A model generated the notes under the pieces. The model ran no database searches and was not told where the DNA came from. It saw nothing but the letters and a program-made list of their open reading frames with translations. From Rhizobium sp. Leaf262 (GTDB taxonomy: Bacteria; Pseudomonadota; Alphaproteobacteria; Rhizobiales; Rhizobiaceae), in assembly GCF_001422245.1 (NCBI RefSeq), contig NZ_LMMM01000004.1:62001-126000 (forward strand): 64,000 bases of DNA, written 5' to 3'. Position 1 is the first letter of the stretch; each line of letters begins with the position of its first letter. Below, one piece after another: positions 37,424-57,405 of the stretch. The position numbers and the translations under genes are program-made.

Positions 37424-37702
37424 CTATTCACCCGGCTTTTTGGCGTGATCATGCCCGCATTGAGGGCAGGTTTTGTTCGGCCATGGATGATAAATGTAAA
37501 AGAACTTCATGTCGGTTCTGAAAAGCGGCGCCCGGCATCTCGGGCAGACGATCACCAGAAATAGCATCGTGGTGAATACAAGCGTGATAATGACGGGCGC
37601 ATTGGGCAATTCCAGCCCTATTGCATCGCCCCAGCCCGGTGAGGTTATCAACGCCGTTATGAAAACTGCGAGAAATAACCATGCCTTTACGTAGAGAGAC
37701 AT
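37424..37702 (-). CDS. Small membrane protein with C-terminal zinc ribbon
   Basis: 92 residues: two hydrophobic helices (about 3-20 and 30-52) followed by a soluble tail with CPRC and CPQCGHDH, which could bind one zinc ion. The linker FFYIYHPWPNK between the cysteine pairs is aromatic. Similar short proteins occur in rhizobia without known roles. ATG 37702 is the natural start before the first helix; a longer frame to 37858 would add 52 residues without support. It is the last gene before the tRNA-Cys element. Confidence 0.6.
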   Translation of the reverse strand: MSLYVKAWLFLAVFITALITSPGWGDAIGLELPNAPVIITLVFTTMLFLVIVCPRCRAPLFRTDMKFFYIYHPWPNKTCPQCGHDHAKKPGE

Positions 37703-37911
37703 TTTGAATTCTTCCCAAAGTTGAATCGGGAGGACGTAATCGCAACGAAATTGGCTTGGCAAGCAATTTTTGATCACTGTGCCAGCGACGTAAGATCGGA
37801 CCGCTACCTTCAAAACTAAGCTGGAGTGCTTGCGTCGGATAACACTTGGAACTGCCACTACAGTGCCGGCAAGAGCGTGAAATCAAACGAAGATGGAGCG
37901 GCTTGAAAAGC

Positions 37912-37957
37912 TTTGGAGGCCTCGCCCGGAATTGAACCGGGGTACAAGGATTTGCAG
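37912..37957 (-). repeat. att copy: 3' fragment of tRNA-Cys
   Basis: 46 bases matching the tRNA-Cys gene from the anticodon loop to beyond the CCA end, with one change (A for G at 37946). Upstream tRNA arms are missing, so it cannot be a working tRNA. Its inner edge starts a ten-base inverted repeat, GCAGGCTTAT (37954-37963) / ATAAGCCTGC (37992-38001), possibly the terminator of the integrase gene. Confidence 0.9.
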
Positions 37958-38017
37958 GCTTATCTCCGGCACTGAAATCATTGACGAATTTATAAGCCTG
38001 CTGCATCCATGTCGCGT

Positions 38018-38731
38018 TCAGTTGAGCAAAACGTTCGCTGCTTGTGCTAGTTCTGTCCCATCGTCAGTCCTTGGGAATAGGTGTCCGTATGTGTCCATCG
38101 TCATAACGATCGATGAATGGCCCATGCGCTCTTGAACCATTTTCACGGGCAAGCCCAGGCCGCCATCTTCCTTTCGATTGATGAGCCAACTGGCATAGAA
38201 GTGTCGAAGCGCATGCAGGCCTGTGTACTTGGCTTTCATGATTGGCTTGCCTCTGACTCTTACCTTTCCGGTATCGATCGAGATGCCAGCTCGAATCATT
38301 GTCGGTTGGAGCCCTCTGTTCACTAGGTTGACGTGGGTCCTGGTGGTCCCGGATGGATTAGCAAACACAATCTCGGAAATGCTTGCCTGCTTCAGTTTCA
38401 AAGCTTTCAGAGAGTTGATGACCATTGGCGGGATCGGGATTGTGCGTATCCCGGCCTTTGATTTCGGCTTGCCGATCTTCTTCCACCGATCCACTCGCTG
38501 CCGAACCGACACCTCGCCGCGCTTCAGATCCACGTCCTGCCATCTTAACCCGCGGACTTCAGACGAGCGCATCCCCGTAAAGATCAGCGTGAGGAACAAG
38601 GGGCGCCAGTGATCATCCAGCGCTGCGACGAAGGCTTTGATTTCTTCGCGAGTAGAGGGCCTCGGTTCTGTCGGTGACGGTAATCGATGGATGGTTTGCG
38701 AGGGCGGCTTAACTTGTGGACGATTGTCCAC
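38018..38731 (-). pseudogene. Tyrosine recombinase (integrase), N-terminally truncated
   Basis: 237 residues covering only the catalytic domain. The catalytic set is complete: Arg55 (TGMRSSEVRGL), Lys near 90-92, His173 and Arg176 (HALRH), His205 (GHSS) and Tyr215 (TMDTYGH). The usual N-terminal SAM-like arm/core-binding domain (about 100-150 residues) is missing. The protein starts in the interdomain linker (VKPPSQTIHR) at GTG 38731, and an in-frame TGA lies two codons upstream. The next 40 bases lead into another gene, so a deletion is likely. Whether the remnant still cuts DNA is unknown; alone it would be expected to be inactive on arm sites. Confidence 0.8.
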
Positions 38732-38754
38732 AAGTCACCTTTCGCCAATTGGCG
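38713..38754. repeat. Two palindromes at the integrase 5' end
   Basis: First: nine-base arms CTTGTGGAC (38713-38721) and GTCCACAAG (38726-38734) around GATT. Second: CGCCAATTGGCG (38743-38754), perfectly self-complementary. They lie between the four-cysteine gene and the integrase remnant, overlapping the start codon of the latter. They could be operator or directionality-factor sites left from the original element. Confidence 0.6.
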
Positions 38755-38772
38755 GGAGGTTCAGGAGACGGC

Positions 38773-39069
38773 TTAGATAATGTCGAGGACGAACTTGTAA
38801 TCTCGATGAGGAATCTCTGTCCCAGAGTAAGTCATAGTGATGAACTTACCCTTCTTGGCCATACCCTTCATTTGGTTCTGGAGCGCACGAGAAGCCTGAT
38901 CCTGGTAGTAAGCCTGGCATTCCGCGTGAACATTTTCATATGTGTCAGAGTTGCCGCAATCTGCATTAGAGCATGTGATTATGTCACCGGCCTCCGGCGC
39001 GGTTGGTCCCTGCACAGAAGACCGGCACTTCCCGCAGAGCACTTTCGCATTTTGTAATTCGTCAGACAC
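38773..39069 (-). CDS. Small protein with two cysteine pairs (element cargo)
   Basis: 98 residues. Cys12 and Cys15 (LCGKC) with Cys33 and Cys38 (CSNADC) suggest a zinc ribbon in the N-terminal half. The rest is a helical segment (ECQAYYQDQASRALQNQMKG) and a strand-rich end (FITMTYSGTEIP). I do not recognise the family. GTG 39069 has AAGGAG seven bases upstream; an ATG at 39114 is possible. It is divergent from the Myb-like gene with a 164-base shared promoter region. It may be a regulator or a cargo of unknown use. Confidence 0.65.
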   Translation of the reverse strand: MSDELQNAKVLCGKCRSSVQGPTAPEAGDIITCSNADCGNSDTYENVHAECQAYYQDQASRALQNQMKGMAKKGKFITMTYSGTEIPHRDYKFVLDII

Positions 39070-39233
39070 TGTTCTCTCCTTCACATCCCAAGAGTGCAAC
39101 GTGCCAGACTGCATGCAACTGTCAAGGCGTGTGTGAATTATGGGGAAAAGCAGCCGGGATATTGGGGATAACTTTTTGCGGTCTTCGTGATGTCATCGAG
39201 TCCGTCTTGCATGTCTCCGATGGGAGATCAGCG

Positions 39234-39830
39234 ATGAACCTAACGCAAATCAGCAGAAGCGAGATCATCGGACAACAAACCAAAGCTCGAATGCTCAGGG
39301 CAGGCAGGACACTGAAAGGCGACAAGCTTTGGACCGATGAAGAGGACAAAGTGCTGCGCGTGAGTTATCCCGATTATCGGCAGATGCAAGTCAAATTACC
39401 TCATCGAACCAAGGTCGCAGTCTATCGGCGTTGTGCAAAACTCGGGATGAAGCGAGATCGGCACGAATGGAAAGCGTCAGAATTGAGCAGGCTTCGGCGG
39501 CTCTACCACCGTAAGGCCACTCGCCAGGAGATCATGACGGAGTTTCCGGAGTTAACCTGGGCGTCTATCTCAACGCGCGCCAGATATCATGGAATTAGCG
39601 GACCCTACCGGCACAAGTACGTCAAAACAGGAAAGCCAGTGATAGACGCGATTCTGGCCCGGCTTGAAGAGATAGACTGGAAGCTTCTGGACCTGGACGA
39701 AGCCAGCAAGTCAGGTAAGTATTTTCGAAATCAATGCTGGCGCAGGTGGAAGCCCAATATGAAGTTCGTGCAACGAGCGGTGCAAGCAATGGACGGTGAA
39801 CTGAAGGCTTCGTGGAAAGAATACAACTGA
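39234..39830 (+). CDS. Protein with two Myb/SANT-like repeats (element cargo)
   Basis: 198 residues. Two tandem helical repeats resemble Myb/SANT DNA-binding units: residues 32-73 (WTDEEDKVL ... YRRCAKLGM) and 79-122 (WKASELSRL ... RARYHGI). Each has an early Trp and a basic third helix. The C-terminal part (140-198) is helical and rich in Trp, Lys and Arg, so it may also touch DNA. Similar proteins are found in phages and integrative elements of proteobacteria. Function is inferred as a DNA-binding regulator. ATG 39234 has GGGAGA nine bases upstream. Confidence 0.7.
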   Translation: MNLTQISRSEIIGQQTKARMLRAGRTLKGDKLWTDEEDKVLRVSYPDYRQMQVKLPHRTKVAVYRRCAKLGMKRDRHEWKASELSRLRRLYHRKATRQEIMTEFPELTWASISTRARYHGISGPYRHKYVKTGKPVIDAILARLEEIDWKLLDLDEASKSGKYFRNQCWRRWKPNMKFVQRAVQAMDGELKASWKEYN

Positions 39831-39842
39831 AGGATTCGACCA

Positions 39843-39935
39843 TGTCACGTGTTGCAATTCATGTCGCGTGGACTAGCCACGCTTGAATGGAACTGCCCGG
39901 AAACCAAGGGAATCAGACTGCAACACGACGCGACA
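39843..39935. repeat. Inverted-repeat cluster beside tRNA-Cys
   Basis: CGTGTTGCA (39848-39856) pairs with TGCAACACG (39919-39927). TGTCGCG (39862-39868) pairs with CGCGACA (39929-39935). Between them is a short hairpin, GCGTGG/CCACGC (39866-39882). They lie 60-150 bases from the tRNA crossover region, where arm-type integrase sites would be expected. No gene is present at 39831-39995. Confidence 0.5.
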
Positions 39936-39993
39936 CAAAACCCTGACTGCAAAAGGGCCTGTTCGCGTAACACATTGAATTAATTGGTGAATT

Positions 39994-40039
39994 TTTGGAG
40001 GCCTCGCCCGGAATTGAACCGGGGTACGAGGATTTGCAG
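39994..40039 (-). repeat. att copy within intact tRNA-Cys
   Basis: The second copy of the 46-bp direct repeat. It begins two bases outside the encoded CCA and ends in the anticodon loop, so this side of the element reconstitutes the complete tRNA. Confidence 0.9.
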
Positions 40040-40069
40040 TCCTCTGCGTCACCACTCCGCCACGAGGCC
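39996..40069 (-). tRNA. tRNA-Cys (anticodon GCA)
   Basis: 74 bases including encoded CCA. Acceptor GGCCTCG/CGAGGCC, anticodon stem GAGGA/TCCTC with loop CTGCAAA, T arm CCCCGGTTCAATTCCGGG. It is the attachment site of the neighbouring element and remains intact. Confidence 0.96.
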
Positions 40070-46646: not shown

Positions 46647-46763
46647 TCCGTCATTTCGGCCTTGAGCCGGAATCCAGTCAGCCCAAGTCATTTGGCCGAA
46701 GAGACCTTTATCGCCGCGCAGACGCGCGGCGGCTGGATACCGGCTCAAGGCCGGTATGACGGA
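46647..46763. repeat. Dispersed palindromic repeat, copy 1
   Basis: 117 bp with imperfect terminal inverted arms of about 31 bases (TCCGTCATTTCGGCCTTGAG ... ending ATGACGGA). A second copy occurs at 57290-57405 with the same arms and similar inner parts (CAAGTC, GCAGACGCG). It lies after the membrane hydrolase stop and before the bolA terminator, between convergent genes. Confidence 0.85.
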
Positions 46764-57289: not shown

Positions 57290-57405
57290 TCCGTCATCCC
57301 GGCCTTGAGCCGGGATCCAGTGCGGTCAAGTCCTTGACAGCAAAAGACCCTTTTGCACCGCAGACGCGGCGCTGCTGGATTCCGGCTCAAGGCCGGAATG
57401 ACGGA
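57290..57405. repeat. Dispersed palindromic repeat, copy 2
   Basis: 116 bp with terminal arms like copy 1 (TCCGTCATCCCGGCCTTGAG ... TCAAGGCCGGAATGACGGA), able to form a long hairpin. It starts ten bases beyond the purB stop in the direction of transcription and may serve as its 3' end structure. Confidence 0.85.

What the first reader, a model, noticed from the sequence alone, without database searches (positions are those of the whole stretch)
37912..40039. Tiny tRNA-Cys integrative element relic with intact ends
Two direct copies of 46 bp (45 identical) bound 2.1 kb. The right copy lies in an intact tRNA-Cys; the left is only the 3' part from the anticodon loop on. Integrase, two cargo genes and palindromes lie inside. 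Typical islands are far larger, so this may be a remnant after deletion or a miniature element mobilised by another integrase.
Basis: partly seen in the sequence, partly recalled or inferred. Interest (0 to 1): 0.75.

Follow-up and report, generated by a model that had tools for sequence, protein, structure and literature searches.

The report
Tiny prophage remnant in tRNA-Cys gene
A 2.1-kb scar of a virus that once inserted into a bacterial tRNA gene: nearly everything between its two ends has been deleted, including half of the enzyme that would cut it out, while both ends still look complete; it is a clear example of a known kind of leftover.

Summary
Two direct copies of 46 bp (45 identical) lie at 37912-37957 and 39994-40039; the right copy is inside an intact tRNA-Cys. 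The genome belongs to Agrobacterium. Of 39 genus genomes, 36 have one copy of the att sequence and three have two: this one, G013 and G020. G019 aligns across the joined flanks and serves as the empty site. Six elements of 11.6-39.8 kb with the same ends and a full integrase sit in tRNA-Cys in G013, A. salinitolerans, two Rhizobium, Shinella and Arsenicitalea. All six carry phage head, packaging or tail genes. The window integrase keeps only the catalytic half (residues 187-390 of 390) and lacks the DNA-binding half. At the break it abuts what looks like the 3' end of the last gene of the G013 prophage. One internal deletion explains this most simply. Both ends keep the att core and six putative arm sites. 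Best reading: a grounded prophage remnant, complete in cis, deficient in trans. No related integrase was found elsewhere in this genome. Mobilisation by another phage is possible but unshown. Ordinary in kind, unusually small and legible.

The parts
37912..37957 (-). distal attachment-site copy (partial 3' half of tRNA-Cys)
   Evidence: 46 nt, 45 identical to 39994-40039; carries A where the intact tRNA has G
37999..38016 (+). left-end pair of putative integrase arm sites (37999-38005, 38010-38016), motif TGYYGCR
   Evidence: same offsets (+41, +52 from the core) in 7 of 7 aligned elements and in 5 of 8 further left ends; coordinates
38018..38731 (-). truncated tyrosine-recombinase integrase frame, 237 aa; residues 27-237 match residues 187-390 of the 390-aa relatives, residues 1-26 are not integrase
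   Evidence: Pfam PF00589 only, against PF00589 plus central domain PF22022 in full relatives; alignment
38654..38678 (.). stretch that holds the deletion junction (integrase similarity ends at 38653; similarity to the terminal prophage gene begins at 38679)
38679..38712 (+). likely 3' end of the last gene of the lost prophage (...DGWFARAA stop; in G013 ...DGWFMRAA stop)
   Evidence: 38679-38711: 33 nt, 88% identical, collinear with the G013 prophage right end, E 3e-5 against the other loci held
38712..38735 (.). inverted repeat ACTTGTGGAC-GATT-GTCCACAAGT between two converging frames (inferred terminator)
   Evidence: read from the sequence; not among the T-tailed terminator-like sites
38773..39114 (-). 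113-aa zinc-ribbon-like protein, accessory gene
   Evidence: open frame; PF17207 at 22.3 bits, below its cut-off of 24.8; matches in 5 of 297 family genomes, own included
39234..39830 (+). 198-aa putative phage transcription regulator, accessory gene
   Evidence: phrog_323, E 1.1e-10; matches in 20 of 297 family genomes, own included; one relative lies beside a tRNA-Cys integrase in G143
39850..39935 (.). right-end set of four putative arm sites (39850 and 39862 on +; 39919 and 39929 on -)
   Evidence: spacing 12/57/10 in 6 of 7 aligned elements, 12/57/11 in the seventh; similar sets in 5 of 8 further right ends
39994..40039 (-). proximal attachment-site copy, inside tRNA-Cys
39996..40069 (-). 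intact tRNA-Cys (GCA), integration target

Best explanation
A temperate phage of a family spread through several Rhizobiales genera integrated into the 3' half of tRNA-Cys and duplicated about 46 bp, rebuilding the tRNA. A later internal deletion removed everything from codon ~187 of the integrase gene to the last codons of the prophage's last gene. Left behind: both att ends with their putative arm sites, the catalytic half of the integrase, and two small accessory genes next to the right end. Without its DNA-binding half the integrase should be unable to excise the element, so the remnant is grounded. Shown: the empty site, the full-size relatives with the same ends, the truncation. Supported by one relative: the gene fragment at the break. 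Inferred: loss of excision, and a single deletion rather than several.
For: Empty sites: 36 of 39 genus genomes have a single copy of the att sequence; G019 aligns across the joined flanks with one copy; in seven fetched collinear genomes the left flank lies 0.16 to 1.08 kb from the tRNA. Same ends in larger elements: 18.8 kb (G013), 16.4 kb (G020 = A. salinitolerans YIC 5082), 11.6 kb (G330), 18.1 kb (G333), 39.8 kb (G331), 39.2 kb (G334). Phage genes: head, packaging or tail matches in six of six elements, 20 chosen proteins scanned against PHROGs. Integrase: 56-75% identical to the catalytic half of full enzymes of 390-444 aa in six elements; central domain PF22022 matched in 5 of 5 full relatives scanned, 4 of them above its cut-off, and not in the window protein (in the sixth, G334, it matched below cut-off). 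Junction: 33 nt, 88% identical to the 3' end of the terminal gene of G013, same order and orientation. Arm sites.
Against: No near-identical parent prophage was found, so the deleted content is inferred from relatives about 70% identical. The fragment at the break matches one relative only (G013); a 36% relative of that gene near the tRNA in G332 does not reach its last residues. In G143 a relative of the regulator lies beside the integrase, not beside the right end, so two deletions or a rearrangement are not excluded. Neither accessory gene was found in the six full elements (tblastn; the best regulator matches there had E 0.09 and 0.32). The integrase half has no stop or frameshift. It departs at 10 of 102 positions invariant in the other six (0 to 6 of 92-98 for the five nearer intact enzymes, 31 of 123 for G334), mostly conservatively: neither clear decay nor clear constraint.
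Confidence: 0.88

Rival explanations
1. A non-autonomous miniature element: its complete ends are recognised by the full integrase of a related tRNA-Cys phage that infects the same cell, which excises and moves it with its two cargo genes.
For: Both cores and all six putative arm sites are kept in register. Integrases 69-75% identical to the window's share tRNA-Cys and the same arm pattern. In V. cholerae the small Aux3 module still circularised with both its recombinases deleted, and its authors suggest an outside recombinase (PMC7721734, passage).
Against: No second copy of the mini-element in the 39 genus genomes. In the family sample no other same-strand pair on one contig is below 13 kb, four two-copy genomes being unmeasured. 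No other integrase of the family in this genome at E<=0.001. The gene pieces at the break look like those of a chance deletion.
Confidence: 0.07
2. A domesticated remnant (compatible with the deletion origin): the two accessory genes were kept by selection, and the deletion locked them into the chromosome, as proposed for the small Aux3 module of Vibrio cholerae.
For: Both frames are intact. The regulator has matches in 20 of 297 family genomes, own included. A precedent exists for a large prophage-like element shrinking to a small att-flanked module (PMC7721734, passages).
Against: No relative was close enough to test selection. PADLOC gave only two weak matches to the zinc-ribbon protein (E 0.0099 and 0.033) and none to the regulator. 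A recent deletion would leave intact frames without selection.
Confidence: 0.2
3. An old tandem or accretion of two different elements, not one deleted prophage.
For: The regulator's relative in G143 lies at the integrase side, and neither accessory gene was found in the six full elements. Prophages of this site differ in content.
Against: Only two att copies and no internal third copy; both ends are of the same family and in register.
Confidence: 0.05

Closest known systems
Grounded (cryptic, defective) prophages, reviewed in PMC6379469 (passages seen)
   Same: Integrated phage that lost what excision needs; here the att ends are kept and accessory frames remain
   Different: Far smaller than the full elements; almost all phage genes gone while both ends remain complete
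Aux3 of pandemic Vibrio cholerae (PMC7721734, passages seen)
   Same: Att-flanked module of ~6 kb thought to derive from a ~40-kb prophage-like element by a large deletion, with reduced excision
   Different: Aux3 has a known T6SS cargo and still circularises; no function is known for the cargo here and excision was not tested
CIME, cis-mobilizable element (PMC5704250, passage seen)
   Same: Lost its integration genes but kept attL and attR
   Different: CIMEs derive from conjugative or mobilizable elements; this one derives from a prophage
Rhizoviticin locus of Allorhizobium vitis (PMC10811719, passages seen)
   Same: Prophage-derived locus downstream of tRNA-Cys with a truncated integrase, explained by deletions
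   Different: A tailocin locus with no att repeats detected; here the att repeats are intact and no tail genes remain. Whether its integrase is of this family was not tested

Membership tests
Prophage remnant (grounded prophage) | Integration at a site that is empty in relatives, with att duplication | tested here: met
   36 of 39 genomes with one copy; empty locus in G019
Prophage remnant (grounded prophage) | Descent from elements with phage structural genes | tested here: met
   Six of six same-ended relatives carry head, packaging or tail genes; the window element itself carries none that was recognised
Prophage remnant (grounded prophage) | Loss of genes needed for excision | tested here: met
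   N-terminal half of the integrase absent; loss of activity is inferred, not measured
Cis-mobilizable element (CIME) | attL and attR retained | tested here: met
Cis-mobilizable element (CIME) | Derived from an ICE or IME | tested here: not met
   Relatives are prophages
Cis-mobilizable element (CIME) | Excision in trans | not testable with these tools
   needs the bench or raw reads
Phage satellite (as recalled: own complete integrase, borrowed capsid) | Own complete integrase | tested here: not met

The most novel reading that the evidence does not exclude
A prophage counterpart of a miniature transposable element: 2.1 kb with both complete phage att ends (core plus six arm sites) and no working integrase, which any infecting tRNA-Cys phage of the family could excise and carry, with a putative phage regulator as cargo that might interfere with that phage.
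Probability: 0.07. Interest if true: 0.6.

Novelty: new member of a known kind. Interest (0 to 1): 0.27.

Why it matters
It is an unusually readable fossil: empty site, full-size relatives, both ends and the likely break can all be named. The comparison also outlines a tRNA-Cys prophage family across several Rhizobiales genera with a conserved att architecture (six arm-like sites at fixed spacing), at a site that repeatedly collects relics; a published A. vitis tailocin locus sits downstream of tRNA-Cys too. If the ends are still usable, such scars would be cargo that other phages could move.

Tried and rejected
Considered and set aside. Chance repeat: rejected. Ancient tRNA duplication without an element: rejected by the empty sites and the element ends. 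Fully functional mini-element: set aside because the integrase lacks its DNA-binding half. Helper integrase in the same genome: none of this family at E<=0.001.

Led nowhere. Viral-contig scans with the two accessory proteins found no relative. The phage-record search matched only the tRNA stretch, at most 3% of the query, in 4 records. NCBIfam gave no family for the accessory proteins; PADLOC gave two weak matches to the zinc-ribbon protein (E 0.0099 and 0.033) and none to the regulator. Single-sequence structure models were poor (mean pLDDT 48.7 and 41.7), so no fold search was run. The sequence search of solved structures gave two hits at E>0.7 for the regulator and recombinase structures for the truncated frame. 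The promoter and terminator scan found no more than its shuffles, and base composition does not set the element apart. A test for decay of the integrase half was not decisive. The arm-site motif was chosen after looking at the ends; searches are therefore not blind, and one search is the check on ends not used to choose it. Contexts of regulator and zinc-ribbon relatives (15 loci) showed only a few genes shared with the prophages.

Papers: passages were read of PMC10811719, PMC5537653, PMC5704250, PMC7721734 and PMC6379469; all others were seen only as titles and abstract starts in search listings. None of the listings shows a paper on this element; the library holds open-licence papers only.

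Palindrome and gene-end coordinates, the counts and the wording on absence were mended.

Full report
What is there. The window lies in contig C4 of a 5.05-Mb genome in 21 contigs. Its genus is Agrobacterium by this link: genus member G020 has a contig C37 of 1,161,597 bases, the length of the A. salinitolerans YIC 5082 contig that holds the matching integrase locus. Two direct copies of 46 bp, 45 identical, lie at 37912-37957 and 39994-40039. They hold the only exact 20-mers repeated directly in 64 kb. The right copy is the 3' half of an intact tRNA-Cys.

The empty site. A degenerate 44-base att pattern with up to 3 mismatches finds two copies in 3 of 39 genus genomes (this one, G013, G020) and exactly one in the other 36. 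One of those 36, G036, seems to carry a scar of the right end, so one copy need not mean never occupied. In G019 the two flanks of the window, joined at the repeat, align as one locus with small gaps left of the repeat: a relative of the small zinc-ribbon gene on the left (window 37424-37858; 48% identical over 91 residues), then tRNA-Cys, then the right flank. So the left gene is host DNA and what lies between the copies was inserted. In seven fetched collinear genomes (G038, G018, G030, G036, G029, G002, G008) the left flank lies 0.16 to 1.08 kb from the tRNA. The single mismatch between the copies is a natural tRNA variant: G in the tRNA of 5 of 39 genus genomes including this one, A in the rest. 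The distal copy carries A. This fits a phage-borne copy in a G-type host with the crossover on the 3' side of that base, but a later mutation would look the same.

The family. The best integrase relatives in named genomes (69-75% identical) are Rhizobium sp. ASV8, R. hainanense, an unnamed Rhizobiales isolate, Shinella fusca and A. salinitolerans (80 of 83 relatives kept). In all five, and in Arsenicitalea aurantiaca (56%), a tRNA-Cys-like copy lies just past the integrase gene: 6 of the 80 loci tested. A tRNA-Cys was found in all five genomes then searched, and the adjoining right end in four of the five; the fifth, G332, has its two att copies on different contigs. A. salinitolerans was already held as G020. 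Six complete pairs of ends give elements of 11,563, 16,439, 18,092, 18,817, 39,195 and 39,826 bp. In a sample of 394 family genomes, 10 have two copies by my reading of the table. Pairs on one contig and strand are 2.1 kb (this one), 13.1, 20.6, 23.8 and 41.9 kb; four genomes have copies on different contigs and could not be measured, and G039 has two copies 1.25 kb apart in opposite orientation (not followed). The 41.9-kb element (G362) and G366 show no related integrase beside their att copies and no arm pattern, so they are probably other elements using the same tRNA. Copies with more than 3 mismatches would be missed.

Parents are prophages. Of 20 chosen proteins scanned against PHROGs, matches include terminase and portal (G331), terminase, portal, head protease, major head protein and tape measure (G013), head protease (G020), a head-and-protease protein (G330), terminase and tape measure (G333), terminase and tail fibre (G334). 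That is six of six elements. Only selected proteins were scanned, so absences mean little.

The integrase is half a gene. The six full relatives are 390-444 aa. Window residues 27-237 align from residue 187 of the 390-aa form onward, with the catalytic residues (assigned by recall of the family: R, K, HxxR, H, Y) in place; residues 1-26 do not align sensibly. Pfam matches the central domain PF22022 in 5 of 5 full relatives scanned (4 above the curated cut-off) and only the catalytic domain in the window. By established knowledge of tyrosine recombinases the missing half holds the arm-binding and core-binding domains, so excision by this protein alone is unlikely. That is inferred.

The break. 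Integrase similarity stops at 38653. From 38679 to 38711, on the other strand, the window reads as the end of a gene (...DGWFARAA, stop at 38710-38712) that matches the end of the last gene of the G013 prophage (...DGWFMRAA stop): 33 nt, 88% identical, E 3e-5 against the other loci held, in the same order and orientation relative to the right end. Only G013 shows this match. A 36% relative of that gene lies near the tRNA in G332, but its match does not reach the last residues. The junction thus lies within about 25 bp. On the G013 map, roughly 17 kb would be missing.

The ends are complete. Alignment of the seven elements shows six TGYYGCR sites. Two lie at +41 and +52 from the core on the left in 7 of 7. 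Four lie on the right with spacing 12/57/10 in six and 12/57/11 in G334. The density inside the larger elements is 0.29 per 200 nt; in the window it is 0.77 per 290 nt, and 2 of 20,000 random placements there have as many. The motif was chosen after seeing the ends, so ends not used before were checked (eight left and eight right ends). Both left sites are present in 5 of 8 (G139, G424, G143, G289, G247); G199 shows only the second; G362 and G366 neither. The four right sites, at spacings of 11-12/56-57/10-11, are present in 5 of 8 (G289, G247, G199, G139, G143); G362 and G366 have one site each and G424 none. The two genomes without either set are those without the related integrase beside their att copies. 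That these are integrase arm sites is inferred.

Cargo. The 198-aa protein matches phrog_323, a phage transcription regulator (E 1.1e-10), and has matches in 20 of 297 family genomes, own included. One of them, in G143, stands beside a tRNA-Cys integrase. The 113-aa protein looks like a zinc ribbon (cysteine pairs, read by eye) and has distant matches in 5 of 297 genomes, own included. Neither was found in the six full elements. Both would fit accessory genes near a prophage end. Their function is unknown and their retention by selection is untested.

How it works now. Most likely it does nothing as an element: integrated, rebuilt tRNA-Cys in use, no excision. The genome has no other integrase of the family at E<=0.001. 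In cis it seems ready for a cognate integrase. That is the interesting possibility and it is unproven.

Compared with what is known. It fits grounded prophages (PMC6379469, passages). It resembles the proposed shrinking of Aux3 in V. cholerae from ~40 to 6 kb (PMC7721734, passages), and in logic the CIME concept (PMC5704250, passage), though CIMEs come from conjugative or mobilizable elements. A published Allorhizobium vitis locus shows the same site and theme: a prophage in tRNA-Cys, truncated integrase, deletions (PMC10811719, passages). A Sinorhizobium prophage in tRNA-Cys is also on record (PMC5537653, table passage). Hence: new member of a known kind.

Noticed in passing
L047 (G036), about 40 nt past tRNA-Cys: About 25 nt identical to the window's right element end at the same distance from the tRNA, without a second att copy: probably the scar of a further, more complete loss.
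   Followed up: partly
L185 (G424), 1501-2457: Orphan left end: att core and both arm sites, but no integrase found behind it; instead unrelated frames (one looks like an outer-membrane protein, judged by eye) up to the contig end.
   Followed up: partly
L071 / L187 (G143): A tRNA-Cys integrase matching from residue 38 on, with a relative of the window regulator divergent from it; possibly another decayed element.
   Followed up: partly
L191 (G199): A related integrase lies at the tRNA-proximal end instead of the distal end; unexplained, perhaps a tandem or inversion.
   Followed up: no
L040-L041 (G013): An 18.8-kb element with terminase, portal, head protease, major head and tape-measure genes: a very compact prophage or a satellite with its own capsid genes.
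   Followed up: no
L055, L052, L040-L043 (G007, G012, G013, G020): The tRNA-Cys segment is inverted relative to its flanks compared with the window.
   Followed up: no
G039:C81:11515-12808: Two copies of the att pattern 1.25 kb apart in opposite orientation.
   Followed up: no
window 46657-46677 and 57375-57395: The only inverted pair of exact 20-mers in the window, 10.7 kb apart.
   Followed up: no
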